Source of the DNA: Aurantiochytrium sp. KH105
Lineage: Eukaryota > Sar > Bigyra > Thraustochytrida > Thraustochytriidae
Reading direction: 5' to 3'
Assembly (NCBI GenBank): GCA_003116975.1
Contig: BGKB01000158.1
Location: 62,001-126,000 of the forward strand
DNA length: 64,000 nucleotides
Within the stretch, counting starts at the first letter, position 1; every line of letters starts with the position of its first letter. The notes under the pieces were generated by a model. The model was not told the DNA's origin. It saw nothing but the letters and a program-made list of their open reading frames with translations, and did no database searches. The position numbers and the translations under genes are program-made. This document shows, piece after piece, positions 2,853 to 48,171 of this stretch.

Positions 2853-3085
2853 CGCGGCGACAAGCCCGAAGGCGGCAAGCCCGAAGGCGCGCGGCAGCGG
2901 CGTCCGCGGGCTTGCAGCACGTGAATGCAGAGCAGCGCGCTGTGCAGAGCGCGGGCGAGCGTGCGGCGCGAGGACGGACGCGGAGAGCCCGGGATGCGGA
3001 CGCGGCGAGGCGAAGACGAAAGGAATGGATGGATGGATGGACGGCGGCAGGACGGGACGCGACGCGGCGCAGGGAGCGGCGGGCC

Positions 3086-3135
3086 TAGCCTGGCCTGGCT
3101 TAGCCTAGCCTGGCCTGGCCTGCGCGGGCCTGGCC
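3086..3135. repeat. (GGCCTA/GGCCTG)n short tandem repeat
   Basis: A run of 5-6 bp GGCCTG and AGCCTA units. A very similar GGCCT array lies at 38571-38607, just upstream of the phosphoesterase start on the other strand, so this sequence class recurs in gene-upstream DNA. Confidence 0.8.
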
Positions 3136-28608: not shown

Positions 28609-29236
28609 ATGAACTGAATGAACGAAATTGACTTTTCTTCCAACCATCCATCACCTTGGTGTCAGGGCTCCAGACGAGCCAAGGGTAGACACTTTGGGTG
28701 CGAGTGGGTTTTTGATTTTTCTGTCGATTGAAATTGAACTCCAAGTGCATGCATTACCTACGTGTTCATCATGGAGTGATCTGCACAGTTTACGCTCATT
28801 TTGGTTTTTTCAACGAGGTTTTCCTTTTCCAAAGCGAGTTCAGCCAAGGCCAAAAAGCAAAAAAAATCACTCCACTTTTTTTTTGGCATCATGCAAAGCT
28901 ACCACGTCACAGTCAAGTGTTGATGTGGACGATTTTGCAAAGTCTAATATCCCCTGATTAAAACTAAGTTAGTGTGTAAAACTGCGTTCTTTGTTGGTTT
29001 CGAAAACTTTCTAACCCAAACCTTGGGTTTAAAAAACTACAAAGTTCATCGATAGGCCTACTAGGCCTACTACTTTCAATACAGTGGGAGATCGTGCAAT
29101 GCGTGCGAGGCGATGCTAACCGTGGCACCGCAAACCTTGAAACGCGCGCTTTCATTTGCCCAAACTTCTGGGTTCGTGGGCGCAGAAGAAGTGGCGCGAG
29201 GGCGGTGCGCGGGAGCCCCCCCTTCCGGTTCATCAC
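28609..29236. other. Intergenic left of the transposable element, with two TAGGCCTA octamers
   Basis: AT-rich for this window. A near-palindrome AACCCAAACCTTGGGTT lies at 29013-29029, TTTAAA sites lie at about 29028-29033, and two TAGGCCTA octamers at 29053-29060 and 29062-29069. The left end of the piggyBac-like element should be here, but no terminal inverted repeat could be proven. The longest frames are shadows or start at TTG. Confidence 0.5.
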
Positions 29237-30829
29237 ATGTCTTACCACCACGGCGGCCGCGGTGGCGGAGGACGGGGCAGTGGTCATGGAGCTGCTCAAG
29301 GCACGACTCGTCCAAGGCGGAGCACATTCTCGAAGAGCTCAGACGCTTCTTCCGAGGACAGCGAGGAAGTGCATAGGAGCAAGCGTCAGCGCTCGTCTTC
29401 CTCGTCGCGTGAACGCTCGTCTCAGTCAACGCAAAGTCAAGGGGAGGCTGTCGAGCAACCTAACCACCAACCACCTTCACATCGACAAAACCCTTCAACG
29501 TCCCCAGACCCGGCGTCTCGACCAAAGTCATGCAAATGTGGAAGCACAACGCACTCCCGAACGAACCATCTCGACTGTCCATACAACCAAGGTCGCTCCA
29601 ACAGTCAAAGAGGCCATGTACGAGGGGCAACATTGCCCTCCAAGCTTAAGTGGACTGCGAACCCTGTTCCGGACGTGTACCATCTTGAATTCTTGGAGGA
29701 CGCACGAGATGAGATGTTTTTGAATGCCATGAAAATGCACTGCGAAGACATTGTTGCAACTCTGAAAGCGCAGCTCGAGAGTGTACCTGGGTTTACTCAA
29801 CGGAAGCCCTCATCGTCGCTCGACTGGATCTTTCCAGTTTTCTTTGTGCTTGCAAAAGACACAATAAACCAGCTGGTGGATTGGACAAAGACTCGCCTTT
29901 GCCAATCGGATTGTGAGCCGATTGACACCACAGAAATGCTCATCTTTCTGGGAGCGTTTCTCACCACGCAACTTCATGGCATCACTTTGGAAGAGAGCAT
30001 GAAAATTTATAACAAACCGACAGTCAACATTCACATCAGCCTCGATGGTTCAGAACGATCGCCCACGCAGTACATCAGAAAGCCCAAGTTGGAAACCAGC
30101 CGCTTTAGGGACATTCTACGTCACCTCAGTGCTGTCGACCCCGAGTTGAGCGTCGGGCACCCATCGCATACTTTCTCCAACACCACTAACATTGTGGATA
30201 ATATGCGCGCGTTCGAATCCCACTTGTTTCGTACCTCGCGCATGATTGCTACGTCTGCGCACCAACACATCGTGATTGACGATGAACTCGTGGGATCCCG
30301 GTCGGCCGGTGTTCAGAAACGAGAACAGAGTCTGCGCAAAGCTGGAAAGGGCGGGGTTAAGAACGATTGTGCAGCCGACGCTCTCTTTCACATCATGTAC
30401 GCTGTGCGCCATTGTGCTCGTGAGTACAACCAAACTTCTGCTGTCCGAGCTCTTCTCAATGAATGTGACGAGCCATTCAACGAACCTGGCGCACTTCGTC
30501 AATGTCCTATCACTGCTGATCGTGGTTACAGCAAGCTCGAGCTGTGGAAGGACGTCATGGCGAAAAGCGCTTCATTCATTATGACTTCGAATTCAAGCTC
30601 AGACCCGTTCATGTCTCTGGACACACAGCTGAGAAAGACGAAACGGCGCGAACGTAACAAGAGGGTGACTGGCCAGTCCTCTAATTTTGTGGCCACAGTA
30701 GAGTCCGTTGCCCAGCGAGCCGCCCGAGCTGGCTTGAATTTTGAGAACTCGATCATCATTGATGACAACGCACGTCTTGGTCGCGAAATTTTCACAGCAA
30801 CAGCCCTCGACCGTTCTCTCGATATCTGA
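29237..30829 (+). CDS. PiggyBac-like transposase, N-terminal and DDE part (5' fragment of a larger gene)
   Basis: 530 residues from the ATG at 29237; the frame opens at 29156 with a TTG that is unlikely to be used. Residues 1-95 are Gly- then Ser/Arg-rich. A zinc knuckle CKCGSTTHSRTNHLDCP starts at residue 99. The piggyBac-type fold follows: a helical N-terminal domain (about 160-330), an acidic pair in VIDDELVGSR (D348, D349) at the first catalytic position, and ITADRGYSKLELW (D428) at the second. The final residues (IIDDNARLGREIFTATA) are typical of mid-protein sequence, not of a natural C-terminus, and the stop comes two codons after the inferred inversion breakpoint. The third catalytic acid was not identified. 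Confidence 0.75.
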   Translation: MSYHHGGRGGGGRGSGHGAAQGTTRPRRSTFSKSSDASSEDSEEVHRSKRQRSSSSSRERSSQSTQSQGEAVEQPNHQPPSHRQNPSTSPDPASRPKSCKCGSTTHSRTNHLDCPYNQGRSNSQRGHVRGATLPSKLKWTANPVPDVYHLEFLEDARDEMFLNAMKMHCEDIVATLKAQLESVPGFTQRKPSSSLDWIFPVFFVLAKDTINQLVDWTKTRLCQSDCEPIDTTEMLIFLGAFLTTQLHGITLEESMKIYNKPTVNIHISLDGSERSPTQYIRKPKLETSRFRDILRHLSAVDPELSVGHPSHTFSNTTNIVDNMRAFESHLFRTSRMIATSAHQHIVIDDELVGSRSAGVQKREQSLRKAGKGGVKNDCAADALFHIMYAVRHCAREYNQTSAVRALLNECDEPFNEPGALRQCPITADRGYSKLELWKDVMAKSASFIMTSNSSSDPFMSLDTQLRKTKRRERNKRVTGQSSNFVATVESVAQRAARAGLNFENSIIIDDNARLGREIFTATALDRSLDI

Positions 30830-31480
30830 GGTGCTTGTGATTCGACTCGGCGCTCCTACAACAACAACATCCCCCAGCTCTTGCGTGTTTTCATCCTCAC
30901 TATCGGTGTCTTCGCCAATGCTGTTCCCGTCAGAGTTGATGTCGTCCTCACAATCGTTGTCAGGTGGCTCGTCGAGCTTCGCATCTTTGGGCGCAGTTGA
31001 TTTTTCACCATCGTCGTCATCCTCTTCGTCGTTGTCTTCAGTGCTGCTGTTGTTATTGTTGTTGCAAGCTTCGTTCTCACCGGACCCCCCCACGACGTTC
31101 TCTACGAGTAGCGCTCGGGCCCGAGGATTCCGTCGAGCAATCGCGCCGCCAGTTGTTCCAGTGATAGTGAAAGTGCGCAAGATGAACCAACAGGCAGTAC
31201 GTTGAGAACACGTGAGCGGAAGAACGCCGCGTTCCCTCAGGTCTTTCTCTACTTTCACACGTTTCAGGCTTGGCCTGTTCGATGGAAAGAAAAGGACAGA
31301 TGCCGAATGGTTCAAACTTTTTGGAATCTTCTGCTTTTCCATGCAAATGTGACTGGCTAATTTTGCCGGAAAAGAAGTGTTGAACTCGACGAACCGGATT
31401 ACTCGAGAGACGCTGTCCACAACTTTGCCCTGATAGTCCCGGAAAGCGATGGCATTTAGCGTTTTGCGTTGACCCTCAAC
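30824..31480 (-). pseudogene. Inverted middle segment of the transposase-nuclease gene
   Basis: The minus strand is open across the whole segment (the frame continues past both ends as shadow of the flanking frames). Reading from 31480 downward it begins VEGQRKTLNAIAFRDYQGK, passes SQRTACWFILRTFTITGT (about 31216-31150), then an Asn/Asp/Glu-rich linker (about 31080-30880), and ends near SRITSTSD. The Q-R-x(2)-W-x(2)-R-x(3)-IT pattern is the N-terminal hallmark of YqaJ-type nucleases, whose remaining part is encoded in the opposite direction at 31496-32953. It has no ATG in a suitable place and no sensible end of its own, so it is best read as part of a disrupted gene. Confidence 0.7.
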
Positions 31481-32953
31481 ATCAACTTGGACCTCATGGG
31501 CTCGTGGTTCTTCACTCGCGGGGTAGTGACGAAAGACATGGAGACTGGCGCTTTGAATGAGCGAAACTTGTTCAATAAGATGCAAAATCAAGACTGGTGC
31601 AAAGAGCTGTACGAGGTAGGTCTTCTGGCACGTGTAGACTACCCTTTCCTTGCAGTTTCAGCGGACGCAGTCGCCAAAGTACGGCGACCGAATACAACCC
31701 CAAGCAGTATGGATCTGCAAGAGAACATCATCGCCAGCGTCGAATTCAAAACCAGATGCAGCAAGGATGCCATTTCTCGGGCGCGGAATGTGCGGGAAAC
31801 ACATGGTCGATATTTTTCGTCAACGGTCGGGGATTCTGTTTGGTGGAAGGCAGTCCCTGCATCATGTCGAGGTCAGGTCATCCACCAGGCTATGGTCCTC
31901 AACGTTGACTTCGTTCTTTACACAGAAGGGACGGTGAAAGAACTTCTCTACGTTTGCCTCGTTTGCGTCCCGTCTGAGGCCCGATCAACTTACATGACTT
32001 CGCTTCTTGCTTATCGTGATCTATTCACTTGGGCGTACGATACGCTGCAGATCGACGCTAAACCCCCGGAGCCCCCTGCTGATGTATTTGTCCTGGAGAG
32101 TGACAGGGTCATTCTTTCGTCGCATCTAAGATTGTGGCGAGCAGTCCGTCGTCACGTGCACGAAAAAGGTGTCTTACCACCCATCCGGATCTTCAAGTCC
32201 AGGGCACAGGTTGCATACAATTCATGCAAGCAGGGTCTTGATGGCCACAGCCACCATGTTGCTGCAATCACTCATACAGGCGTATTCAAGCTCAAATTCG
32301 AACAAAAGCTATGCACAAGAGGCATCCTTCAACTTGTTGCCAATTCGTTCTCCTTTTACAGGATTCTTTGGGCTTGCACCAACGAAAATGGAGACTTTGA
32401 GTTCCCGTTTACATCGATTGCGGCATTCAGGAAGGCGTGCAATGGTGTTCGAACTCTCAGATCCTTTGCTTTTGCTCTGTCTGAAGCCCTCTCTCGAGGA
32501 CCGAACACAGTTCATCGCAGCCCACGAAACGCCTCGGGAGCAACTTCGTCACACGGTTCTAATGTGCAACAACCAACGTCCTGCTCAGATGTGCAACAAC
32601 CAACGTCCTTCTCAGAAGCAACCCTTTCTCCTACGTTAAGTGAGGAAGATGCGAGGCGCATTGCAGAACAATGCCCGTCAAAATACGCACATAAGCGATG
32701 CATATATTTTGACACGCCCACGCTTAGGGCGATCCGTCTCAATCGCAATTTTAGTCATCGCATAGAATTCATTGGAAAGTCAAGAAACGGCCGTCCCAAG
32801 CAGCAGCCTTGCGCGTTTTGCAGAGACTCCGGAAAGAGGACCCAGACATTCTGCAGCACCTGCTGTGTCCCACTTCACAATGTTGTATCCGGAAATGACA
32901 AATCCTGCGCGCAGAAATGGCATAGCCTGCAAACTTTAAAACCCCACCACTAA
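31481..32953 (+). pseudogene. YqaJ-like nuclease core and Cys-rich C-terminus (3' fragment of the transposon gene)
   Basis: Coding potential runs from about 31481; the first ATG is at 31496 (MGSWFFTRGVVTKDMETG), giving 485 residues if translated alone. The PD-(D/E)XK nuclease signature is present: YPFLAVSADAV with Asp at 31664-31666, and ASVEFKT with Glu at 31742-31744 and Lys at 31748-31750. A helical region follows, then a 27-bp tandem duplication (VQQPTS repeated, about 32560-32612), and a C-terminal CAFC-x12-CSTC-x15-C-x4-H finger like the cysteine-rich domain of piggyBac transposases. Alone it lacks the nuclease N-terminus. It may still be expressed as a separate protein, so 'pseudogene' is a judgement. 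Confidence 0.65.
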
Positions 32954-33601
32954 ATGAAATAATCTCAAAAGTGATCTTGCCTGCGAACGGGCATTCCGAA
33001 GACCATGGTGTTCTGCCTGAAAAGTATAAGTTTTCCAGCTTCCAAAAAGACTTTCAACCAAGGGGAGACACTTACCATGTGTCTCTATAAATTGGTATGG
33101 GACATTGGCAAAGAACGCAGTTTCATTGCGCAAGTTTTTAGCTTCTATCATTTATATGGAGCCCCATTTATTAGGAATAAGCAGTACCTTGCAGTTTAAA
33201 CTGCAATTTTGTCTGAGATAGGGTTACTGGCCTCCTGGGGAAAAGGTGTCCTTTTCCTCTTTCACCTTTATACTAGTGTTTTGACTATGAAAGACGTAAG
33301 AGATTGCTCAACGGTCTTCTGCCTTGTTGCGTCAGGTCTCGAGGACGGCGAATCAGACTTGCGCGTGCGACGCCTTGACGGTGCGGACGAAGTTGAGAAA
33401 GGCAGGCAAAGCAAAGCCGAGCACTTCTCGCCGCTGCGCATATCGCAATTGCGAACCGCGGCCGGCGAGAAAGAGTCCGCGTCGAAAGGGAGAGAGAGCG
33501 CCGGCACGGGTCTTGTGTCTCGTCAAGGCTCAACGGCACGCAAGAACCCGGCGTCGCGCGCAAAGACACTTTGCGAGCTCGACGAAAGAGCGCACGACAC
33601 G
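32954..33601. other. Right flank of the transposon and 5' flank of the WD40 gene
   Basis: It contains an 18-bp perfect palindrome at 33189-33206 (separate entry), a TTTATACTA run at 33268-33276 and an AGGCAAAGCAAAGC run near 33402-33415. The WD40 frame is open through 33209-33601, but that stretch lacks an ATG giving a sensible N-terminus and is Arg/Ser-rich, so it is treated as 5' untranslated. Confidence 0.5.
33189..33206. repeat. 18-bp perfect palindrome with a central TTTAAA
   Basis: TTGCAGTTTAAACTGCAA is its own reverse complement. It contains TTAA (33196-33199), the piggyBac target sequence, about 240 bp after the transposon stop, so it could mark the right element boundary. It could equally be an unrelated regulatory palindrome. 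Confidence 0.6.
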
Positions 33602-34696
33602 ATGAGCGACGCAGGTCTGTCGAAGCGGCTGGTGCCGCTCTTCACGGTAAGCGACAACCCAAGCGAAGTTTTCTCGACGCGATTCTCGCCGGACGGCAAG
33701 CTCCTGGCAGCCGGCTGCGGTGACGGCACCGTGCGCGTGTACAATGCCAGTACGGGCAGACTTGCGTACGAACTCAAGAATGGCAAGGGCCGAGAAGCCA
33801 TGCCCGTGACAGGAATTCGCTTTCGGCCTCTGGGCGCATCTAAGACCAAGAACGTGCTCCTTGCCGTGAACGCCGATGGCTCGGTGTCGCATTGGCACGT
33901 GACCTCGGGAAAATGCCTTCACACCATCAAGCACGAGGATAACCAGCTCTTTTGCGTGGACTACAGACCGGACGGTGCCGTCTTTGCTACGGCTGGCAAG
34001 GATTTTACGGTCCGCGTGTATGATGAGGCGACGAAGACGCTCATGACCGAAATGCGCTCCGGCGTTGGGCTCACCACGCCAGGTCACTCAAACCGTGTGT
34101 TTTCTTTAAAATTCAACCCGACCGATCCAAACACGCTCATTTCCGGTGGCTGGGACAACACAGTGCAGATTTGGGATCTTCGTGTCGAGCAGGCTGTTCG
34201 CTCCATCTACGGCCCACACGTTTGCGGCGATGCCGTCGACATTTATGACAACACCATTGTGACTGGTTCGTGGCGAACCAAGAATCAGCTCGAGCTTTGG
34301 GACTATGGCTCGGGCGAGCGCAAGTGCGAGATTCCCTGGAATCAGAGTGTCGTGCACAGCACCACGCCCGCGATGCTGTACTGCGCCCAATTTAGCAAGG
34401 GCAGCGCCAACCTCATTGCTGCAGGTGGCACTGGGTCCAACGAGGCCAAAGTATTCGACCGTTCCGCCGGCAACAAGCTCATTGGCACCGTCGCCGGTCT
34501 TTCGCGCGGCGTCTTTACGGTGGACTTTGATCCCTTTGGTACCCGCCTTGCGGTCGCTGGCGGCGATACGGCCGTTCGAGTTCTTGGTATTGAGACCAAG
34601 CAGGGTGACGTTGGCGGCCCTGCTGGATACGGCGATGTCGATCGTTCGTACGAGGGTAAGGATGCAGGTCCTATCGAAGGCAAGGACTATGCTTAG
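33602..34696 (+). CDS. WD40-repeat beta-propeller protein of unknown role
   Basis: 364 residues from ATG 33602 (MSDAGLSKRLVPLF). Seven WD-type units fill almost the whole length: TRFSPDGKLLAAGCGDGTVRVYN, IRFRPLG...VSHWHV, VDYRPDGAVFATAGKDFTVRVYD, LKFNPTDPNTLISGGWDNTVQIWD, a DIYDNTIVTGSW...LELWDY unit, CAQFSKGSANLIAAGGTGSNEAKVFD (counted without intervening residues) and VDFDPFGTRLAVAGGDTAVRVLG. The protein is therefore a stand-alone propeller, presumably a scaffold. Strong GC-biased codons and the tidy repeat pattern suggest a well-expressed gene. I recognise no diagnostic insert linking it to a named WD40 protein. Confidence 0.85.
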   Translation: MSDAGLSKRLVPLFTVSDNPSEVFSTRFSPDGKLLAAGCGDGTVRVYNASTGRLAYELKNGKGREAMPVTGIRFRPLGASKTKNVLLAVNADGSVSHWHVTSGKCLHTIKHEDNQLFCVDYRPDGAVFATAGKDFTVRVYDEATKTLMTEMRSGVGLTTPGHSNRVFSLKFNPTDPNTLISGGWDNTVQIWDLRVEQAVRSIYGPHVCGDAVDIYDNTIVTGSWRTKNQLELWDYGSGERKCEIPWNQSVVHSTTPAMLYCAQFSKGSANLIAAGGTGSNEAKVFDRSAGNKLIGTVAGLSRGVFTVDFDPFGTRLAVAGGDTAVRVLGIETKQGDVGGPAGYGDVDRSYEGKDAGPIEGKDYA

Positions 34697-35218
34697 CTGT
34701 GCTGTTCACAAAGAGAAACTAGGAATAGAGGATTTCTTTACTTTTATGATGATGATGATGATGATGATGGTAATGGGACCCCCGGGTCGTTTTCTTTTTC
34801 TCGATGATCTTTTGCTTTGAACTAGGCCTAGGCCTAGTCTTGGGAAAGCAGTAACAGAGCAATAGGCCTAGCTTGGGACGATTTCTTTGCTTGTCTCTGG
34901 CGCGTTCTAATCTACGTCCATTATTTTTTTTTATCGATAATTTTTCCCTTTGAGAGTTTTTTTTTTTTTTTTTCAATCGATGCCAAACGATGCCAAAGCA
35001 GAAAAATTCAAAGCAAAGCAAAGCAAAGCAGATCGGGCTAGCGCCCTGAGGTCTTGGCTTGAGAAAGCCACGCTTGCGCGGCAAGCTACGCCGGGCCGCA
35101 TCGCAATTCGCTCTGTACGAGAGACCTTTCGCAACTACCGTTTCCTACACGAACGCGTGTGTTGTGAGTATACTCGACGCGCTCGCCTACGGTTAGAAGA
35201 CCACTGCACTGCAAGCTC
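34697..35218. other. Intergenic rich in simple repeats and TAGGCCTA octamers
   Basis: (GAT)n at 34747-34769, then overlapping TAGGCCTA octamers at 34823-34830 and 34829-34836, another at 34863-34870, a poly-T run of about 16 at 34958-34973, and a (CAAAG)n run at 35013-35031. It includes the WD40 3' flank and the upstream region of the gene at 35219. No frame of note. Confidence 0.6.
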
Positions 35219-35869
35219 ATGGCTGGCCTCGACGAAGACGTTCGAGACGAAGCCGTGCTGCACAGCCTGCGACGCAGACTGTGCAGAGTGCTGGGCCCCA
35301 AGGCTGTCGGTGACGAGGAGCGACTTGCTGACATTTTACATAGAATTGCCGATGGCAAGGTGGCAGGCCCAGGATTGACGCCTCACCAGACCGCTCAAGA
35401 GGTCATCCGAGCTCTTGCAAGCATTGCAGGTGCCGTACGCGCCCTGCAGGATCAATCGAATGAAGAGGAGAACGAAGCTTGCGTGCCGATAAAGAATGCT
35501 GCGAAAGCATGCGTCCAGACAGACGAGCGCGTCTCGTCAACGCCCACTGTTTCAAAAGTCTACAAAAAACGCAAGCGGATTTTTCCATCTCACAGCACTG
35601 TCACAAGACCGCGATCAACAATGCCGACAACCAGCGACATCTGTTCTGGAGAAGAACAACGAGGATCTCCTTTTCCTTCTGATACAGTCGCTCCGATGCC
35701 GTTGTCCCGGTCGAAGCCGCGCCAGCACCGTGAAATCCGATGCGATGCGGCCAAGGTCTCGCGTCGCGCGACCATTGACGCTTCCGAGCTTGACAAGCTC
35801 CGCGAGCTATACAGCCAGGTGGACCGAGAGCCTCTGGCGGTGGTTTCCCAGGAGACCACCTCGGCGTGA
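35219..35869 (+). CDS. Hypothetical protein with a helical N-terminus and basic Ser/Pro-rich middle
   Basis: 216 residues, ATG at 35219. Residues 1-80 are helical and regular (VLHSLRRRLCRVLGPKAVGD, then AQEVIRALASIAGAVRALQD) and could form a small helical bundle. The middle (about 95-180) is basic, Ser/Thr/Pro-rich and probably disordered, with a possible nuclear-localisation cluster KKRKRIF. The last 35 residues form a predicted amphipathic helix (SELDKLRELYSQVDREPL). No known domain was recognised. The (CAAAG)n repeat about 190 bp upstream resembles those before other genes here. Confidence 0.55.
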   Translation: MAGLDEDVRDEAVLHSLRRRLCRVLGPKAVGDEERLADILHRIADGKVAGPGLTPHQTAQEVIRALASIAGAVRALQDQSNEEENEACVPIKNAAKACVQTDERVSSTPTVSKVYKKRKRIFPSHSTVTRPRSTMPTTSDICSGEEQRGSPFPSDTVAPMPLSRSKPRQHREIRCDAAKVSRRATIDASELDKLRELYSQVDREPLAVVSQETTSA

Positions 35870-36106
35870 ACGTTTAGTAAATTGAAAAGAATCAGGCCTT
35901 GCGCCGCTTGAGCTCGTATTCCCAAGCTTGTTGCCAGTTCCTCGCCTGTCAGTCACGGCGCGCTTCTGCCAATGGCACCTCTGTTTTGCGGAAGTCGAAT
36001 GAATGCTTGCAAAGCAGCGATCGCAAAGCGGCAATCGAAAGCGATGCAAAGCAAAATCTTGGCAGAGCGGACGAGGCGCGCCAACCAGGTCGAGACCGCA
36101 GGGGGG

Positions 36107-37090
36107 ATGGAGACCTTTGCGTACGTGCCGCCCGGCGGGGGCTACCCCACGCGCGTGTCCACGGGTCCCGAGTCTGAGCGACCGCGCTCGAGCGGCGGGG
36201 ATCAAGGCGCGGGCAGCCTTGGTGAAGCTATGCAGGCGGCGAGCGCCATGGCTACCGATGCCAAGCGGCGCTTCGTCGACGCGTGCAACACGATCGGGAG
36301 CCAGACGAGCATCTCGGTGAGCAATTACACTGGCGTCTCGTACGCGCTCACGCTCGAGGTCGGTGGCATCGTGTACCAGCGTGAGACGCTGCCTGCAAAT
36401 GATGCACTGGTGGCGCAGGAGGACGACGCCGGGGCCCCGCTCACGGGAAGGAGCGGGAGCGCCAAAGACTTTGTGGGCGCCAATTTTGCCGTGGTTAAAT
36501 TCAAGTGCGGCTACGTCTTCTATTCTATATCGGCCACACCAATTGTCGACGATGGCCTCTCGCATTCCCCCGTCCAGGGCTCGCGCACGATTCACTTTGT
36601 CTATGGTGGATCCAAGGTTTCGCTCCGTTCAGATCTGCGGGATCCACGCGGATTTAGGCTTGTCAACGAGACCACAGAGATCGGCGGTAACGAAATGTCC
36701 GATGACCTCGAGCTCACTCTCGAAGTGACGCGTGAATCGGCTCGCCACGTTAAAGATACCTATCTGGACCCTGCCATTGCCAAAGTGCGCACCACATTGC
36801 AGAGCTCCATGTCGGGTCGGAACATGGGCAATAGTACAAACGGTGCTACCGGATCTAGCGCTTTTGGATCCCAGATTTATGACGATTATGGCGTGCAGTC
36901 GCCATCGCAGGCAAGACGACAAGAACAAATGCAAAAGAAACGCCAGGAAGAAACCGCCGCCGCCGCCACCACCTCTAAGCAGCAGGCCGAGGAGCCAGAA
37001 CCAAATTTGTTTGGATTTGAGGAGATCAATGAGGACCCGCGAGATCGTTACTACGCGCCTGTGTCGTCCTCAGCGAGCGACGATGTCTGA
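36107..37090 (+). CDS. Hypothetical protein with a beta-rich domain and a C-terminal adaptor-like tail
   Basis: 327 residues from the ATG at 36107 (METFAYVPPGGGYPTRV). An in-frame ATG at 35972 would add 45 residues, but that stretch has the GCAAAGC repeats typical of 5' flanks here, so the downstream start is preferred. Residues about 60-215 alternate hydrophobic strands (SISVSNYTGVSYALTLEVGG, NFAVVKFKCGYVFYSISATP, RTIHFVYGGSKVSLR, LELTLEVTRES), suggesting a beta-sandwich. The remainder is Gln/Ser-rich with a helical, charged stretch, and an acidic EPEPNLFGFEEINED segment near the end resembles short linear motifs in trafficking adaptors. No family was recognised. Convergent with the phosphoesterase gene, 92 bp away. 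Confidence 0.6.
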   Translation: METFAYVPPGGGYPTRVSTGPESERPRSSGGDQGAGSLGEAMQAASAMATDAKRRFVDACNTIGSQTSISVSNYTGVSYALTLEVGGIVYQRETLPANDALVAQEDDAGAPLTGRSGSAKDFVGANFAVVKFKCGYVFYSISATPIVDDGLSHSPVQGSRTIHFVYGGSKVSLRSDLRDPRGFRLVNETTEIGGNEMSDDLELTLEVTRESARHVKDTYLDPAIAKVRTTLQSSMSGRNMGNSTNGATGSSAFGSQIYDDYGVQSPSQARRQEQMQKKRQEETAAAATTSKQQAEEPEPNLFGFEEINEDPRDRYYAPVSSSASDDV

Positions 37091-37182
37091 CGGCCTTGGG
37101 CTTGCTAAAATCACCCATACGCACACGCACACACAAAATTCATAATCTGAAAATACGTTTTGTTAGAATTCTTTCGACGGGC

Positions 37183-38568
37183 CTAGTTGAGAAGCTCATA
37201 GTTCATGTCACTGCTATATGTGCCAGGTCCAGCGCTGTGGCAGACAAGAACGCCGTCGGGAACGACGGCCTTGACATGTCCTCCGTTTTCGAGACGATAG
37301 CCAAGCTCGGGATGATCTTCCACCACAAAGGCATATTCAGTCCCGTCCTTGAGATGGCCTCGAATACAAGTCTCTTGTGGGGTGACCACGACCTCGCACA
37401 CGACTTGGCCGCGGGTGTCAGCCGCCTCAGGGTCAGAATACGAGGTGTCAGCAGTGATGACGACCAGCTCCGGGTCGTCGCTTCGTCGAATGACCGTGGG
37501 GGTCTCACCATGAGGCCGATGGCCCGAAACCACACGTCGAATACCTCCGCGGTGCAAAAAGCCTGCCACACTTTGCGGAATCGACGCTGGAATAGTGTCG
37601 TCATCCTCAAGCCAATCATTGTACACTACCCCGCGCCCCTCAATCCCTCCAGGACGACTATAATCCATGACAAGATCGCCGTTGGCGTTCGGCGAACGGA
37701 CTTCTGGGTTGGCGGCCCACTCCGCGAGCTGGTCCGCGTAAAATTCATTCAAGCGACTAATCCAGGCTCGCGGTTCGTCCATGTAAAAGCCGTCTCGTCG
37801 CGTCGTTGGCACAAAGCCAAGACCGCCAGCTGGCACTGCTCCGTGTACAAAGAGTGTGTCTCCCACAAGCGCTCCTAGCTGCGCGGCCTCAAGGTACGAT
37901 ATCATATACCCGCCAGGTCGCATGGCATCGCAAAAGGAGGCGACGACGTCGACATCACTGGCTGGATTTCCATTCATTTCGGTGAGCTCTTGTCGCCTCG
38001 ACTCAAAGGCGTTGGGCGAGCCCATGGTGCGCTGCAGCATCATTTTCAGGAAATTGACAGCAGCCGTGGGATCCTTGTCAAAGCGGCGCCAGAGTTCCGA
38101 GCTGAGGCGGAGTTTGTTGATGTCGCGATTGCCTGCGAGAATGAAAACGCGATCAGGATAACGATTTTTAAGGTCCACGAGCGCGCGAGATACGCGAATG
38201 TCGCCCGGACCGTGGTCGCAGACATCGCCTCCGTATACGAAGCTGGCGTCCGCGTCCTTGAACTCGAGCTTCACGGCTGAAGACGAGCGCTCGGTCAGCT
38301 CGAGCACGCTCGAGAACTGCACGCTACGGCAGAAAAAGTCAAGATGGCCCTCCACGTCCGTCAGGTACCCCACGCGCTTGCCGCGGGGCAACGACGTTGA
38401 AGACGGCGAACAAGACTTGGACGAAGAGGTGGTCGTCGTCGTCGTCAAGTGTCGCTGCCATGGGTCGCCTGCTCGCCGCCTCAACAACGGCGAGCTTGCC
38501 GACGTCGGCGTCCGGCGGCAGTGCGAACCCCGCAGGGCGCAGACGAAGCCCGCGACCGCGGCACGCAT
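37183..38568 (-). CDS. Calcineurin-like metallophosphoesterase, probably mitochondrial
   Basis: 461 residues from the ATG at 38568; the frame continues upstream only from a GTG. The first about 50 residues are Arg/Ala/Ser-rich without acidic residues (MRAAVAGFVCALRGSHCRR), typical of a mitochondrial presequence. The metallophosphatase core shows YLTDVEGHLDFF (first metal block, D-x-x-G-H), VYGGDVCDHGPGD (second, GD-x-x-DHG), LAGNRD (third, GNRD) and a late VSGHRPHGETP (GH-x-H). All metal ligands of the PPP-like fold are therefore present. A long insertion between GNRD and the final His motif is unusual for bacterial-type phosphoesterases. The substrate is unknown. Confidence 0.8.
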   Translation of the reverse strand: MRAAVAGFVCALRGSHCRRTPTSASSPLLRRRAGDPWQRHLTTTTTTSSSKSCSPSSTSLPRGKRVGYLTDVEGHLDFFCRSVQFSSVLELTERSSSAVKLEFKDADASFVYGGDVCDHGPGDIRVSRALVDLKNRYPDRVFILAGNRDINKLRLSSELWRRFDKDPTAAVNFLKMMLQRTMGSPNAFESRRQELTEMNGNPASDVDVVASFCDAMRPGGYMISYLEAAQLGALVGDTLFVHGAVPAGGLGFVPTTRRDGFYMDEPRAWISRLNEFYADQLAEWAANPEVRSPNANGDLVMDYSRPGGIEGRGVVYNDWLEDDDTIPASIPQSVAGFLHRGGIRRVVSGHRPHGETPTVIRRSDDPELVVITADTSYSDPEAADTRGQVVCEVVVTPQETCIRGHLKDGTEYAFVVEDHPELGYRLENGGHVKAVVPDGVLVCHSAGPGTYSSDMNYELLN

Positions 38569-39028
38569 GCTGGCTTGGCCTGGCCCGGCCTGGCCTGGCC
38601 TGCCCCCTGGCAGCCGCCGCGCGCAGCTCCAAGACTGAGTGTCTCTCTCGGTCTCTCTGCCAGTACCTCGAGGGCCGCTCGCACTCGCCGCCTCAAAGGC
38701 AGCGCAGGAACCCTTCGAGCCGCGTCTGCGCGCGGGCGTGGCGCGCGCGCACCAAGGGGCCACTTGCCAGCGGCATCGGCGTCGTGGACGTGACGTCGTT
38801 CACCGTGGGCATCGACATTGGGCAAGAGGCGACAGCGGCCTGGCCGGCTGGGACTTGGGCTATTGGATACGACTCGTGCTTCTTGACAGAACGAAGCGGC
38901 GAACGCGAGGCGAACGCACGCAAAAAGGGGGCTCGAGGCGGGAAGACGGGCGAGCGGGCGAGCGGGCGGGCGGGCGAGCAGCGATCGAGAAGCAGAAGCA
39001 TAGATACCTTGATCACTCACACTGCGCG
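38569..39028. promoter_or_regulatory. Divergent upstream region with GGCCT repeat
   Basis: 460 GC-rich bases between the phosphoesterase start and the ATG at 39029. A (GGCCT)n run lies at 38571-38607, immediately upstream of the phosphoesterase ATG, and a (GAGCGGGC)n run near 38950-38975. The plus-strand frame is open from a GTG at 38639, but that part is Arg-rich and treated as untranslated. Confidence 0.5.
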
Positions 39029-40630
39029 ATGTCCGCGATTCCTGACGGACAGCATCTTGACTGGGACAACGACGAACGCGATTTACTTCGGGGGATCGCT
39101 CATGGCATCGAAGCGGAATTGCAGGATGAGGGGTCCGTCGCTCAACCCGATCTGATCATGAAGGCATTCGGCAGGGCGAAAAAGATCATTGAAGGCAGAA
39201 ATCGCTGTTTCTACAAAAACACGGCAGGATCCATTTATTGGGCGATGCGAGATGCTTTCCAGGTGGACGACCCCGTGGCACTGCAAGAGGCCATCGACTT
39301 TTACCGGATGGAGCTTGCCACGATTGCTGGCGTCCTCACGTCGATTGCGGAGTGTTCACAAGACTCGAGGATTCCATTCTCCATCGTTGAATCGAAGCGA
39401 TTGCGCTCGCTCACGGGTTGGTTCATCGCAGGTTTGGCGGGCTCGGTCTTACCTGGTGTGATGAAGCCGTCTGAGATCATTCTGGATGTGTTATCGCCTC
39501 ACGCCGTGTGGTCGTCCAATTGCGCAAGCCATGCATTGACAGCCTTTGAGCTCGATGTGCATTTTCTGCTCATAACTGCTCGACGTTTCGGTAAAATTGA
39601 TAGCGTCAATATCAGAATAGAGAATGTGCACAAAGATCTCCAAGAGGCAGTCGCAGTCGCCATCGAAAAGGCAACACATGAGAAGCTACTTGAATGCCGC
39701 AGCGTCTCCATTGCCTTCCCTGGAGATTTTGGCAGACGCGTGTTAAAAGCGCTTTTTGGTCGACGAAAAGGGGGTGGTGCTTACACCATTACCATCAGGC
39801 ACAGTCTACTCGCTCAAGACATCGAAGTTCTCCGTGCGGCGCTAACCAGGAGAAATTGCTCGGGCGTCTTAACGCTGTCATTGACTCTTGCAAGGTCTAG
39901 CCTGTTTGTCAGTGAACGTTTTCGTAAATTGGTCTCAAGCAAGTGGTGCTATTCTAGCACGGTCATCATCACTTTCAGACGCTCTCTGAATGACGGGCAG
40001 CAGATATCATTTGCACCAGACGAGGAGGATGCGTTCATCGATGCGATGGTTGCTGGTGATAATATTCATAGCCTGCAAGTGTCGTCAATTTCTCCCGAGT
40101 TTCAAATGCGCATCGCGCGTGTGTGTCACTTTAAAAGTGTCCTTGTCGACGCTGTCAAGGTCGTACGAAGAGCATCACGCTATCATCGATATCGAGACTG
40201 GTGCTTGACGGTCTGGCGCATTGGTTTCAGGCATCTTAAGTCTAACTTTTCCGGACCATACTTCACCAGAGCCGAGGCGTTCGTCTCCTATTGGACGATG
40301 TCTAGCACAGCAATCCATCGCGATGTTGCAGCATTGATGAAGCACGATCGCCAATCGGGAAGCAAAATTGCGAAGGCTCTCACCATCGTTCGCGAACTGT
40401 CCATCGCATACAAACTTTTCACGTCGAGCCTTCCGGTATTGATCCAAGACTTTGTTGATGTTGCAGGCATCATTGAGTACACTCTATGGCATCCCAGATC
40501 CGTCATGTCATGGTACCACAATGACAACTTACCAACTCCCAAATCAATGCCAAAAGTGAAGCATATCGCAGCATTCAAGACACATCCCAGAAAATCTAAG
40601 CGTCTCAGGAAATCCAATTGGCAATTTTGA
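39029..40630 (+). CDS. Orphan protein of 533 residues, no recognised family
   Basis: ATG at 39029 (MSAIPDGQHLDWDNDERDLL). The sequence has a normal globular composition with no low complexity, no signal peptide and no clear transmembrane helix. The N-terminal 150 residues look helical (GIAHGIEAELQDEG, DLIMKAFGRAKKIIEGRN, EAIDFYRMELATIAGVLTSI). Residues about 220-360 alternate strands and helices, including VSIAFPGDFGRRVLKALFGR and three VxTIxIRHSL/LTLSLTLARSSL-like strands that could be repeats. The C-terminus is very basic (KTHPRKSKRLRKSNWQF), suggesting nucleic-acid or nuclear association. Its AT-richer codon use than its neighbours may mean a lineage-specific or mobile-element-derived gene. 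No function can be assigned. Confidence 0.65.
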   Translation: MSAIPDGQHLDWDNDERDLLRGIAHGIEAELQDEGSVAQPDLIMKAFGRAKKIIEGRNRCFYKNTAGSIYWAMRDAFQVDDPVALQEAIDFYRMELATIAGVLTSIAECSQDSRIPFSIVESKRLRSLTGWFIAGLAGSVLPGVMKPSEIILDVLSPHAVWSSNCASHALTAFELDVHFLLITARRFGKIDSVNIRIENVHKDLQEAVAVAIEKATHEKLLECRSVSIAFPGDFGRRVLKALFGRRKGGGAYTITIRHSLLAQDIEVLRAALTRRNCSGVLTLSLTLARSSLFVSERFRKLVSSKWCYSSTVIITFRRSLNDGQQISFAPDEEDAFIDAMVAGDNIHSLQVSSISPEFQMRIARVCHFKSVLVDAVKVVRRASRYHRYRDWCLTVWRIGFRHLKSNFSGPYFTRAEAFVSYWTMSSTAIHRDVAALMKHDRQSGSKIAKALTIVRELSIAYKLFTSSLPVLIQDFVDVAGIIEYTLWHPRSVMSWYHNDNLPTPKSMPKVKHIAAFKTHPRKSKRLRKSNWQF

Positions 40631-41398
40631 GGTCTACCACGGGTTTTCCTTTTTCTTTTTTCTTTTCTTTTCATTTCTGTCTTTTTTTCTTTGTATTTTG
40701 GGGTTCTTGGTTTTTCGGTTGCAGTTCCGTTCTCAATTATTACCTTTGTAGGCCTATTTCGATTTGTTTGTTTGCTTCTTCGCTTGCTTGATTACTTGCT
40801 TGTTTGATTCTAAGACGCTAACGGTGAACTGAAAATGAACATTGACACTAACTTGTTTAGCAAAGTAGGTCCAGAAAACATCAGTGCAGGTCGAAAATCA
40901 TGATGATCTCGCCAAGCTGTGCAACGGCACAATATCTGCAAAGCTCTCCATTTTGTCGTACTACTTCGCACTCCCACCGCCGGCAAAATTCGAGAATCTT
41001 TCGAAGAGAACCTGCGATCCTGGGAACTCAGTCGGATCATCAAGCTTGCATGCGTCCCGATTTCGGTCGGCCAATCGTGGGTGGAATATGTCACACAATT
41101 TTTTTAGAATTTTAATTTTTAAAAAGCCTTCTAACTGTAAATCTGCACCTCGTGATCACTCGCAATGCTTTAAGGGAAGAGATCCAGCGCCATTGGAAAA
41201 CTAACTGGCGTTCGGTTCTAAGGAAACAGTGCCTTGTGCCGCAGATCCCAGAGATGTTGCTGCAGCATCATGTCACCATGGTCTGGTGTGCTGAGATGAA
41301 GTCCATTGCGCATTCCTGCCCAGGTAATGGAGCAAGTCCACTATCGACATCGCACCATGCAGAATCTTCAAGGTGTTGATGTCCACCGCATCGAGATG
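40631..41398. other. Low-GC stretch with T-rich run and no firm gene
   Basis: A pyrimidine-rich (TTTTC)n section at 40646-40690 follows the orphan gene, then a TAGGCCTA octamer at 40749-40756. Short frames on the plus strand (to 106 codons) have mixed composition and no family features. On the minus strand, sequence before the pseudogene stop at 41399 continues with protein-like fragments (e.g. VDINTLKILHGAMS near 41320-41380). Confidence 0.45.
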
Positions 41399-41654
41399 CT
41401 ATTGCGCGTTCTCATATTTGGTCGCTGAACGCTGGCTTGCAACGGCCAAGCACGCAGCCACGGCGCGCCGCCACATAGGGTGCTTCGTCTCGATCATGCG
41501 CCGAATGTTGGTCACTATATCCGCAAAGGTCGTTCGGCAGTCATGGAAGGTCATCTGGTCGACTTTTCTCGCGCACATGGCCGTCTCGCCGTAAAAGCCC
41601 CCCCTTCTTCAGCCAAGGCAATAAGCTCGACGTTGTGCATTCCAGCGTGCCATA
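41399..41654 (-). pseudogene. Truncated, frameshifted minus-strand coding fragment abutting an assembly gap
   Basis: Reading minus from the N at 41655, one frame gives GMHNVELIALAEEGG. After the run of seven G (plus-strand C-run 41598-41604) coherent coding continues in another frame: MCARKVDQMTFHDCRTTFAD, then NIRRMIETKHPMWRRAVAAC, ending at a stop at 41399-41401. One extra base in the homopolymer would restore a single frame. The upstream part is lost at the N. Because the indel is in a homopolymer 50 bp from a gap, sequencing error is as likely as real decay. No family was recognised. Confidence 0.45.
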
Positions 41655-41655
41655 N
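41655..41655. other. Single ambiguous base (N), probable contig join
   Basis: This is the only N in the window. Base composition changes abruptly here, from moderate GC on the left to extremely GC-rich low-complexity sequence on the right, and a coding fragment on the left is cut off. A one-base N is often a placeholder for a gap of unknown size. Confidence 0.8.
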
Positions 41656-45837: not shown

Positions 45838-48171
45838 CTAAAAGAGGTCAAAAGGATTGCCCTCTGCTTCTTCTTTTTCTTGACTTGGTGCCTGCTGCGA
45901 GGCCTGCTGACTTGCTTGAGCATAAGGATTCGAAACTTGCGGCACTTGCTGACCACTCGTCGACGAAAGAGACGCGAAGGGATCCTGGCTACCTCCGGAC
46001 CCCTGAAATTGACCAAATGGATCCTGCGCGGCAGAACCTCCGGAAGAAAATGATCCTTGCTGTTGCAATTGTGCACCTTGCCCTGGCTGCTGCACTGGAA
46101 AGCTCTGTGAGGATCCTTCAAAGTCCCCGAAATCAGCATCTGAATTGCCGTTTGCACCCGTATGCTGCTGCTGCTGATACGGCTGTGGCTGCTGATACTG
46201 CTGTGGCTGCGTCCCCGAAAAGGACGACTGTTGCGAAGACGAAGGCTGCTGCATGCTTGGAAACGTTTGCGATGAGCCCTGAAAGTCGCCAAAGTCTCCA
46301 AAGTCTCCGTCGTCACTTGATTGCTTTTGCTGTGGCTGTGTGTTTGGAAAAGACGGCTGCTGCGTCGACGAGGGCTGCTGCATGCTTGAAAACGGCTGTG
46401 CCGAGCCTTGAAAGTCGCCAAAGTCTCCGAAACCCCCGTCGTCACTTGACTGTTGTTGCTGTGGCTGTGTGCCCGAAACAGACGGCTGTTGCGTTGACGA
46501 GGGCTGCTGCATGTTTGAAAACGTTTGCGACGAGCCCTGAAAGTTGCCAAAGTCCCCACCGTCAGCTGACTGGTGTTGCTGTGGCTGTGTGCCCGGATAA
46601 GACGGCTGCATTCCCTGAAATCCTTCTAGTGACGACTTGTCCTGATGTTGCGGTTGTTGTTGCGGTTGCTGATGCTGATGCTGCTGGTATTGCTGATGTT
46701 GCGGATTCGGAAATGACGATGAAGGACCTTGCATTTGACCCGAGGTAGAATCATTGTGGGTATTGATGTCGTTGCTGTACTGTTGCGATGGCAATTGTTG
46801 TTGAGGATGCTGCTGATACTGCTGCTGGTGTTGAAACGGAGGGTATTGCGGAGGAGCCTGTGACTGAGTTTCTTGCATGTTCTGAAATCCACCCAAGGCG
46901 TCATTACTTGTTTGTCGCTGAAATGGTTGCTGTTGTGCACCTGGATGAGCTTCAAACGATCCAGTTGCAATGCCATTTTGCATGACGTGGGGATCCCCCC
47001 CTTGATATTGGTGAGTGCCTGCCTGCAAGCCGCTGGCTGAATCCGAAGGTGCGGTACTTGACGTCGTCTCAAAAGACAAAGCTGCGAAAGGATCGTCCAA
47101 TGATGTTGCACCTTGTCCCATGGCATTGTTCTGCGACGACGTAGACGCCATCTGCGATGCACCGAAGCCATCACTCGGCCCGGATTGTCCCTGAGGTTGC
47201 TGTAGATGCTGCTGATGCTGCTGAAGCTGCGACGGAAAAGACTCCATCTGCGCCGACGGTGGCTGGGTAGAGTTGTGAAAAGCATCGGGCTGCCCTGGAT
47301 TGAAAGCCTGTGGGGACGAGAAGTCTCCCCAGTCATCATCGTCATTGCTCTCATGAACGCCTGCTGAAGCGGATGCCCCATTACCCTGCCCGAAAGGAGC
47401 AGAGGGCTGCGTCATGTGCGGTCTTGACACTGGCGCCGAAGGCCCGCTTGAGTACAGATCAAAACCGAACATGTCATCTACTGGAGCAGACTTTTTGGGA
47501 GCAGCATCGCCAACCACAAGACGAGGTGCATTGGGCATGATCTCGTTAATGTTTCGCGTCGGAGGAGGCGCAGAAAAGCCCGTCTCGACGTCGGAGTCGG
47601 AGGAGCTCGAGTCCTCGTCGCCAGCGGTTTTGGATTTGCGCTTCTTTAACTTCTTTTTCTCCTTCTTTGCCGCCTTTTTTGCAGCCTTCTTGCGGGCCTT
47701 GGCCTCGGCGCGACGGCGTTCCTCTTCCGAATCGGTCGAGTCACTCGAGGACGAAGAGTCTTCTTCCGAAGATGATTCCGCCGCGGCTGCCTTTTTCTTA
47801 CCCCCGCTGCTTTTGCACCAGCGTCGATCCTGATACTTGTACATGATAAACTTGCGAATACGATCGCGCTGACCAGGTGTCGGCTCTGGAAAGTCCTTTT
47901 CTTTATATTTTGCGAGCCAGATTTTGCGGGCAATTGCATTGCCTCCGTTGCGAATGCTTTGCATCTCCTCGTCGGTAAAGGTGCTCATACTGATGCCCTT
48001 GACCCGATAGCTGAACTCTCGCAGAATGCCACTGCAGCTCGTGCACACGAACGTGTTGAAGTTGAGGCAAATGTAGCTCGGTCCACGCTCGCCACACTCG
48101 AAGCAGAGTTTGTTGGCCTTGCTCTTTCGCTGCATGCCCCGCAGGATCTTCACATTGCGGTCGTCCGCCAT
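45838..48171 (-). CDS. ArfGAP of the AGFG type with clathrin/EH-adaptor motifs
   Basis: 777 residues, ATG at 48171. Residues 1-125 are an ArfGAP domain: zinc finger CFECGERGPSYICLNFNTFV then CTSC, followed by the arginine in LREFSYRVKGISM and WLAKYKEKDFP. The CFECGxRGPxYxxLxxxxFVCTxCSGIxRE form is characteristic of AGFG1/Hrb-like ArfGAPs. The rest is disordered: a Ser/Glu/Lys-rich linker, then Gln-rich sequence with DPFAAL, DPFGQF and DPFASL motifs (AP-2/adaptor-like), repeated FGDFQGS units (43-residue tandem repeat) and a C-terminal NPFDLF (EH-domain plus clathrin-box-like). Together these suggest an endocytic cargo adaptor that also regulates Arf. The ArfGAP call is firm; the endocytic role is inferred from motifs. 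Confidence 0.88.
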   Translation of the reverse strand: MADDRNVKILRGMQRKSKANKLCFECGERGPSYICLNFNTFVCTSCSGILREFSYRVKGISMSTFTDEEMQSIRNGGNAIARKIWLAKYKEKDFPEPTPGQRDRIRKFIMYKYQDRRWCKSSGGKKKAAAAESSSEEDSSSSSDSTDSEEERRRAEAKARKKAAKKAAKKEKKKLKKRKSKTAGDEDSSSSDSDVETGFSAPPPTRNINEIMPNAPRLVVGDAAPKKSAPVDDMFGFDLYSSGPSAPVSRPHMTQPSAPFGQGNGASASAGVHESNDDDDWGDFSSPQAFNPGQPDAFHNSTQPPSAQMESFPSQLQQHQQHLQQPQGQSGPSDGFGASQMASTSSQNNAMGQGATSLDDPFAALSFETTSSTAPSDSASGLQAGTHQYQGGDPHVMQNGIATGSFEAHPGAQQQPFQRQTSNDALGGFQNMQETQSQAPPQYPPFQHQQQYQQHPQQQLPSQQYSNDINTHNDSTSGQMQGPSSSFPNPQHQQYQQHQHQQPQQQPQHQDKSSLEGFQGMQPSYPGTQPQQHQSADGGDFGNFQGSSQTFSNMQQPSSTQQPSVSGTQPQQQQSSDDGGFGDFGDFQGSAQPFSSMQQPSSTQQPSFPNTQPQQKQSSDDGDFGDFGDFQGSSQTFPSMQQPSSSQQSSFSGTQPQQYQQPQPYQQQQHTGANGNSDADFGDFEGSSQSFPVQQPGQGAQLQQQGSFSSGGSAAQDPFGQFQGSGGSQDPFASLSSTSGQQVPQVSNPYAQASQQASQQAPSQEKEEAEGNPFDLF
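46180..46610. repeat. 129-bp tandem repeat inside the ArfGAP gene
   Basis: About three and a third copies of a 129-bp (43-codon) unit; the anchor CATGCTTG/CATGTTTG occurs at 46252, 46381 and 46510, exactly 129 bp apart. Each unit encodes FGDFQGS, a Met-Gln-Gln-Pro-Ser-Ser stretch and a TQPQQ stretch. High similarity between copies suggests recent expansion. Confidence 0.85.

What the first reader, a model, noticed from the sequence alone, without database searches (positions are those of the whole stretch)
29237..32953. A transposon gene is split into three pieces by an internal inversion that would restore one continuous frame if reversed
Two plus-strand frames flank a minus-strand frame, and each looks like part of one protein. 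If 30824-31480 (657 bp, divisible by 3) is reversed in place, the left frame, the middle and the right frame join in phase at both junctions. That leaves one open frame of 1239 codons from the ATG at 29237 to the stop at 32951-32953. The left junction is at GAT (30821-30823) and the right at ATC (31481-31483), which share a 3-bp microhomology. The two halves of a YqaJ nuclease (N-terminal QR..W..R motif on minus, D and E-x-K on plus) end up in the right order. It may be a simple inactivating rearrangement, an invertible switch, or a misassembly.
Basis: partly seen in the sequence, partly recalled or inferred. Interest (0 to 1): 0.85.

Follow-up and report, generated by a model that had tools for sequence, protein, structure and literature searches.

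The report
Haplotype-specific inversion inside a transposon gene
A short stretch in the middle of a large jumping-gene protein is flipped on one of two near-identical genome copies of what is probably a marine protist, while the other copy still reads straight through, so this is an ordinary breakage inside a little-described kind of jumping gene.

Summary
The window (contig C158) is collinear with a second contig, C84, over nearly its whole length. One block of about 684 bp (window 30806-31489, ambiguous by 2 bp of end complementarity) lies in reverse. C84 carries it unflipped inside one natural open frame of 1,260 codons.

No inverted repeats above chance, lost bases or assembly gaps lie at the breakpoints, and no other family copy found shows the flip. 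Best reading: a haplotype-specific inversion by break and rejoin that disables this copy. A switch is improbable; an assembly error is unlikely but untested, because no reads are held.

The gene belongs to a family in this genome, probably a thraustochytrid, that joins a piggyBac-like transposase, a YqaJ-like nuclease and a cysteine-rich domain in one chain. Where readable, ends are CCC...GGG with an ATAT duplication. Two internally deleted copies have an empty counterpart contig, so such copies moved recently. This architecture is the more interesting part. Both alleles look decayed: C84 has lost the glutamate of the nuclease E-x-K motif. The nuclease assignment rests on two sibling members near the Pfam cut-off and on motif order.

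The parts
28951..33223 (+). Whole element, about 4.27 kb: CCCC at 28951 to GGG at 33223
   Evidence: 5' ATAT|CCCC and 3' CTGAGATAGGG resemble the terminal inverted repeats of the C73 copy; the C84 allele has ATATCCCCATCTCAGAG at the same place. The 3' flank reads TTAC in both alleles, not ATAT, so no target duplication is visible here.
28979..28993 (+). Subterminal inverted repeat, left arm (AAACTGCGTTCTTTG)
   Evidence: 15 nt, 100% complementary to 33109-33123
33109..33123 (+). Subterminal inverted repeat, right arm
29237..30829 (+). Left frame: N-terminal part with a CxC..H..C motif and a piggyBac/IS4-type DDE domain; family residues end at 30805, then 7 codons read from flipped DNA and the stop TGA
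   Evidence: Frame; PF01609 26.6 bits (cut-off 23), PF13843 17.3 bits (cut-off 22.4); D codons at 30278-30283, 30518-30520 and 30761-30766 match residues invariant in the 5 members of alignment A2
30806..31489 (-). Inverted block, 684 bp (can be written as 682-686 because of 2 bp of end complementarity); holds the linker, the QR..W..R start of the YqaJ-like domain (QR codons at 31199-31204) and an acidic stretch
   Evidence: Reverse match to C84; no stops in the minus frame
31490..32953 (+). Right frame: rest of the YqaJ-like domain (D at 31664-31666, E-F-K at 31742-31750) and C-terminal cysteine-rich domain (about 32810-32938)
   Evidence: Frame; 96% DNA identity to C84; motif columns in alignment A1

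Best explanation
The window holds one haplotype's copy of an old piggyBac-like DNA transposon whose single large protein joins a piggyBac-type transposase, a YqaJ-like nuclease and a C-terminal cysteine-rich domain. On this haplotype about 684 bp in the middle of the gene was flipped, most likely by two breaks rejoined in reverse (or an equivalent template switch) with only 2 bp of end complementarity and no bases gained or lost. The flip stops the frame after the transposase domain and separates it from the nuclease and cysteine-rich parts. The other haplotype keeps the unflipped order. Shown: the difference between the two contigs, the ancestral order, the breakpoints, the lack of repeats. 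Inferred: break-and-rejoin as the cause, loss of function, and that the two contigs are haplotypes rather than homeologs.
For: C84 copy unflipped with one 1260-codon frame. Window collinear with C84:55156-119961 apart from a stretch of about 240 bp at window 2860-3102 and the flip, 3.54% substitutions over 62,415 aligned bases of the plus-strand blocks; one reversed block. The 20 bp printed outside each breakpoint are identical, nothing gained or lost. Longest inverted match around the two breakpoints is 6 nt; 94% of 500 random position pairs do as well or better. In one search (58 matches, lower bound) four matches besides the C84 allele itself run collinearly through both breakpoints (C103, C84:199305, C85, C184; two allelic pairs), and 16 of 16 other multi-piece copies keep all pieces on one strand. 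The 9 natural frames chosen for alignment A1 align in the same order. Two genome copies: RPB2-type genes give 6 hits in 3 pairs; three other element pairs match through their flanks.
Against: No reads are held, so the flip rests on the assembly alone. The left (P 0.04) and right (0 of 2000 simulations) pieces differ less in amino acids between the alleles than a neutral simulation predicts, though the middle does not (18 nonsynonymous against 19.8 expected, P 0.29); an element dead throughout would not show this. Of 68 amino-acid differences, relatives place 15 on the flipped allele and 22 on the unflipped one (2 fit both, 29 unresolved), so the flip has not visibly accelerated decay.
Confidence: 0.84

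Rival explanations
1. Assembly artefact: the block was put in backwards when contig C158 was built.
For: Only the assembly is available. The window does hold one N at 41655, where C84 has about 1 kb that the window lacks, so the assembly is not gap-free.
Against: No N within 10 kb of the breakpoints and no repeat there to cause a false join. The block carries its own differences to C84 (28 substitutions in 684 aligned bases plus a 30-bp length difference), so it is not a stray copy of the other contig.
Confidence: 0.1
2. Programmed invertible switch that turns the transposase-nuclease fusion on and off.
For: Phase is kept in either orientation (684 = 3 x 228).
Against: No inverted repeats above chance at the ends; no other copy shows the flip.
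Confidence: 0.02
3. C84 and C158 are hybrid subgenomes or a large duplication rather than alleles; the inversion is then a difference between homeologs (not exclusive of the break-and-rejoin mechanism).
For: The pair differs by 3.5% in substitutions, which is high for alleles.
Against: Pairing is general: RPB2-type genes come as 3 pairs and three element pairs continue into their flanks. This speaks against a merely local duplication but not against a hybrid.
Confidence: 0.3
4. The locus is a host-retained (domesticated) gene and the flipped haplotype is a heterozygous null.
For: dN/dS between the alleles is 0.44, 0.53 and 0.33 for the three pieces; left and right are below neutral simulation.
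Against: Recognisable transposon ends remain; the unflipped allele has lost the E of the nuclease E-x-K motif (K844) and carries 22 polarised deviations from relatives; the flanking WD40 gene is far more constrained (dN 0).
Confidence: 0.08

Closest known systems
piggyBac superfamily (PF13843 DDE_Tnp_1_7, C-terminal cysteine-rich domain)
   Same: Sub-threshold PF13843 match in the window's left piece and matches over the cut-off in three sibling places; three conserved D positions in the closest members; C-terminal CxxC...CxxC..LH..C..WH domain; CCC...GGG ends and a 4-bp AT-only palindromic target duplication.
   Different: Target duplication ATAT rather than the TTAA usually given for piggyBac (TTAA recalled); a YqaJ-like nuclease lies between the DDE domain and the cysteine-rich domain; frames of about 1,170-1,350 codons; the IS4-type model PF01609 scores better than PF13843 on the window's left piece.
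ISL2EU (PHIS superfamily) transposons
   Same: A DDE transposase transposon that also encodes a YqaJ nuclease (PMC4482050, passages read).
   Different: In ISL2EU the YqaJ protein is a separate second ORF and the transposase has THAP and HTH domains; here it is one chain with a piggyBac-like transposase.
YqaJ / lambda-exonuclease-type viral recombinase nucleases (PF09588)
   Same: Motif order QR..W..R, N-E, S.D, E-x-K, Q..HQ; two siblings over the Pfam cut-off when neighbouring stretches are counted.
   Different: Fused into a transposase; the window's own pieces and the C84 frame are not found by the Pfam model; a small profile-profile test was inconclusive.

Membership tests
piggyBac superfamily | PF13843 domain | tested here: inconclusive
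   Window left piece 17.3 bits, below the cut-off 22.4; sibling places C184 23.4, C85 22.5 (an allelic pair) and C65 22.6 with neighbours pass; 4 of 11 aligned rows match at E<=1
piggyBac superfamily | DDD catalytic residues | tested here: met
   D346/D347, D426 and D507/D508 (C84 protein numbering) invariant in 5 of 5 closest members; not all kept in the more divergent rows L048 and L049. The equation with the piggyBac triad is by position and recall; PMC9942806 (passages) gives DDD as typical.
piggyBac superfamily | C-terminal cysteine-rich zinc-binding domain | tested here: met
   C1200, C1203, C1214, C1217, H1222, C1232, H1237 nearly invariant in alignment A1; zinc binding itself not tested
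piggyBac superfamily | TTAA target-site duplication | tested here: not met
   Filled site on C1 against empty C26 gives ATAT, with one mismatch in the adjoining base; C73/C18 fits ATAT plus a 5-bp repeat; the C242 copy reads ATAT left and TTAT right; the window's own flanks are ATAT and TTAC. TTAA as the rule is recalled.
piggyBac superfamily | Terminal inverted repeats beginning CCC | tested here: met
   C73 and C83 copies ATATCCC...GGGATAT; C1/C242 CCCTAAC...GTTAGGG. CCC as the rule is recalled.
YqaJ nuclease (PF09588) | Pfam model match | tested here: inconclusive
   C270 21.9 (23.7 with neighbours) and C24 21.4 (24.0 with neighbours) against cut-off 22; 1 of 11 aligned rows at E 0.0019; window pieces and C84 frame none
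YqaJ nuclease (PF09588) | D and E-x-K metal-binding residues | tested here: inconclusive
   Present in the window right piece (EFK); the C84 allele reads KFK; present in some but not all aligned members
YqaJ nuclease (PF09588) | Fold | not tested
   Structure prediction machine busy at all five attempts
ISL2EU | Separate YqaJ ORF and THAP-bearing PIF/Harbinger-like transposase | tested here: not met
   Single chain in the 9 natural frames aligned; no THAP or Harbinger family among the 14 families matched by 11 rows
Recombinase-driven invertible element | Inverted repeats at both ends of the flipped block | tested here: not met
   Longest inverted match 6 nt within 60 bp of the ends, not above random positions

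The most novel reading that the evidence does not exclude
A lineage of piggyBac-like transposons in a thraustochytrid-like protist has built a YqaJ/lambda-exonuclease-type nuclease into the transposase chain, inserts at ATAT, and has been active recently enough to move deleted copies on one haplotype only; the nuclease would process or protect ends during excision or integration, in parallel with the separate YqaJ protein of ISL2EU.
Probability: 0.5. Interest if true: 0.6.

Novelty: new variant of a known kind. Interest (0 to 1): 0.4.

Why it matters
The flip itself is an ordinary kind of mutation, though its precision and the availability of both orientations in one assembly make it a clean example. 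The wider family matters more. A transposase and an exonuclease-type domain in one chain, with the same pairing known as two ORFs in ISL2EU, would suggest that some cut-and-paste transposons gain from their own end-processing nuclease. Copies with empty counterparts in the same assembly make the target site and mobility directly testable.

Tried and rejected
Solved-structure searches with two family profiles gave one weak hit each, of unrelated proteins (E 0.68 and 0.41). A profile-profile comparison with a YqaJ set (5 phage proteins and the host's own C11 protein) was weak (E 0.046, probability 1.2%) although it paired the S.D, E-x-K and Q..Q columns; the control comparison with the DDE half scored about the same (E 0.068), so it does not discriminate. 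One viral-contig scan and a phage-record search found no relative of the right-hand piece. Naming the organism by rRNA failed (unanswered; no match). Rejected: that C84 is the rearranged copy (relatives share its order); that the C84 locus is a transposed copy elsewhere (its surroundings are collinear with the window).

One search prints an 'open frame' of 1270 aa for C158 and 1260 for C85 and C184; direct reading gives 562 and 497 codons in the window, 612 for C85 and 1210 for C184, so I used direct readings.
Full report
What was checked. The window is G000:C158:62001-126000 of an unnamed eukaryote assembly of 76.03 Mb in 367 contigs. The left piece (29237-30820), the middle (30824-31480, minus) and the right piece (31481-33000) each have one second place at 92-96% identity, all on contig C84 and there all on the plus strand in the order left, middle, right. 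The C84 copy is one natural frame of 1260 codons stop to stop. A third, degenerate relative on C132 matches parts of the left and right pieces at 73-82%.

Not a transposed copy but the homologous region. The window is collinear with C84:55156-119961 in four plus-strand blocks (1-2859, 3103-30806, 31489-41654, 41656-64000), with 2207 substitutions in 62,415 aligned bases (3.54%). One reversed block in collinear position was found at E 1e-6 or better. The assembly holds two genome copies: RNA polymerase second-largest-subunit genes give six hits in three pairs of equal or near-equal score, and other element copies pair up with their flanks included (C85/C184 95.4% over 7 kb; C103/C84:199305 95.4% and 88.0% in two blocks; C32/C241 91.5%). 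I read C84 and C158 as haplotypes; hybrid subgenomes are not excluded.

Breakpoints. Against C84 the 20 bp printed to the left of 30806 and to the right of 31489 are identical, with nothing gained or lost at the joins. Because 2 bp are complementary across the ends (one inside, one outside), the block can be written as 682, 684 or 686 bp. The longest inverted match between the 120-bp surroundings of the two breakpoints is 6 nt; 94% of 500 random position pairs reach that. The only N in the window is at 41655, 10 kb away.

Which state is derived. A protein search with the natural C84 frame gave 58 matches in this genome, a lower bound. Besides the C84 allele itself, four matches run collinearly through both breakpoints (C103, C84:199305, C85, C184; two allelic pairs). 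Of the copies that are broken into several matches, 16 of 16 others keep all pieces on one strand; C158 alone does not. Nine natural frames plus the window's left and right pieces as separate rows align in the order transposase, YqaJ-like, cysteine-rich. Of 12 loci read for long frames, 9 have one of at least 1,173 codons (two of these run off the fetched stretch) and 3 have shorter ones (612, 722, 782). So the flip is the derived state and was found here alone.

What the gene is. The left piece matches PF01609 (26.6 bits, over its cut-off of 23) and PF13843, the piggyBac model, below its cut-off (17.3 against 22.4). With PF13843 the family members on C184, C85 and C65 pass, narrowly. The YqaJ model PF09588 finds two members, C270 and C24, over its cut-off of 22 when neighbouring stretches are counted (23.7 and 24.0), but not the window pieces or the C84 frame. 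Motif columns fit: QR..W..R, then N-E, S.D, E-I/F-K and Q..HQ (compare the YqaJ set). The nuclease assignment is therefore likely but not settled.

The transposon. The C73 copy has 17-nt perfect terminal repeats ATATCCCTATCTCAGAG...CTCTGAGATAGGGATAT. It is internally deleted: its protein match starts at query residue 614. Its flank also occurs on C18 at 99% without the element; the site fits an ATAT duplication plus a 5-bp repeat on the right. A second, shorter relative occurs on C242 and C1 at 99.6% identity over 1986 bp with different surroundings, and the C26 counterpart of C1 is empty, giving an ATAT duplication with one mismatch in the adjoining base; the C242 copy reads ATAT on the left and TTAT on the right. 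That relative has no match to query residues 442-1154. So recent movement is shown for deleted copies only, not for full-length ones. In the window the ends are CCCC at 28951 and GGG at 33223, with flanks ATAT and TTAC and subterminal 15-nt repeats at 28979-28993 and 33109-33123. Both contigs carry the insertion, so it is older than their split.

State of the two alleles. dN/dS between window and C84 is 0.44 (left), 0.53 (middle) and 0.33 (right), against 0.28 for the upstream gene and 0 for the downstream WD40 gene. Compared with neutral simulation using the observed transition bias, nonsynonymous changes are fewer than expected on the left (29 against 34.8, P 0.04) and right (26 against 37.6, 0 of 2000), not in the middle (18 against 19.8, P 0.29). 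Of 68 amino-acid differences, relatives place 15 on the window and 22 on C84, 2 fit both and 29 are unresolved; the C84 changes include loss of the E of E-x-K. So both alleles look decayed, some constraint acted for part of the time, and the flip leaves no extra decay, which fits a recent event.

Host. Four places, in two pairs, exceed the cut-off of the pfaD-type enoyl reductase model, inside open frames of 1845-2152 codons as printed by the tool. With my recollection that thraustochytrids carry such PUFA synthases in large proteins, I take the host to be a thraustochytrid; no call names it.

Literature. ISL2EU transposons carry a YqaJ protein as a second ORF, of unknown role (PMC4482050, passages read). 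PMC9942806 (passages) gives the DDD triad and C-terminal cysteine-rich domain as typical of piggyBac homologs. Searches for piggyBac with YqaJ (3 papers), YqaJ with transposase and transposon (16), piggyBac with thraustochytrid (0), YqaJ with ISL2EU (2), piggyBac with labyrinthulomycetes (2), and two broader ones (2 and 6 papers) gave no paper whose title or abstract start describes a piggyBac-YqaJ fusion. Apart from the two papers named I saw listings only, and the library lacks most subscription journals.

Verdict. The split gene is real in the assembly, and is best read as a haplotype-specific, repeat-free inversion inside an old piggyBac-like transposon. The flip is ordinary; the one-chain transposase-nuclease architecture with an ATAT target is a new variant of a known kind and the part worth following.

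Noticed in passing
window 41655: A single N in the window marks an assembly gap: C84 has about 1 kb here that the window lacks, beside a GCGCGGCTCG-type repeat, so it is probably missing sequence and not a real deletion.
   Followed up: partly
L043 (C73:78015-81205 approx.) and L052 (C18): An internally deleted family copy with perfect terminal repeats is present on one contig and absent from its counterpart.
   Followed up: yes
L044 (C242) and L045 (C1); empty site L059 (C26): A 1986-bp relative, 99.6% identical at two unrelated places, has an ATAT target duplication at C1 and no match to residues 442-1154 of the C84 protein.
   Followed up: yes
L049 (C69) and L050 (C23): Long open frames of the family (1,173 codons, and at least 1,209) in which the E-x-K and some DDE residues are not conserved; the search also hits C133 and C296 with similar scores. 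These are candidates for host-retained genes.
   Followed up: no
L006 (C132:162918-164127, minus): A degenerate relative made of four adjoining pieces of the element with three internal stretches missing.
   Followed up: no
window 46199-46608 and 55232-55818: Tandem arrays with units of 129 and 207 bp, both divisible by 3.
   Followed up: no
G000 C193:25715-26917 and C261:24287-25489: Paired matches over the full piggyBac model PF13843 (104.9 and 103.8 bits) in open frames of about 1545 codons as printed by the tool.
   Followed up: no
window 2860-3102: About 240 bp of the window have no counterpart in the plus-strand blocks of C84, and the block to the left is less similar (87%) than the rest.
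   Followed up: no
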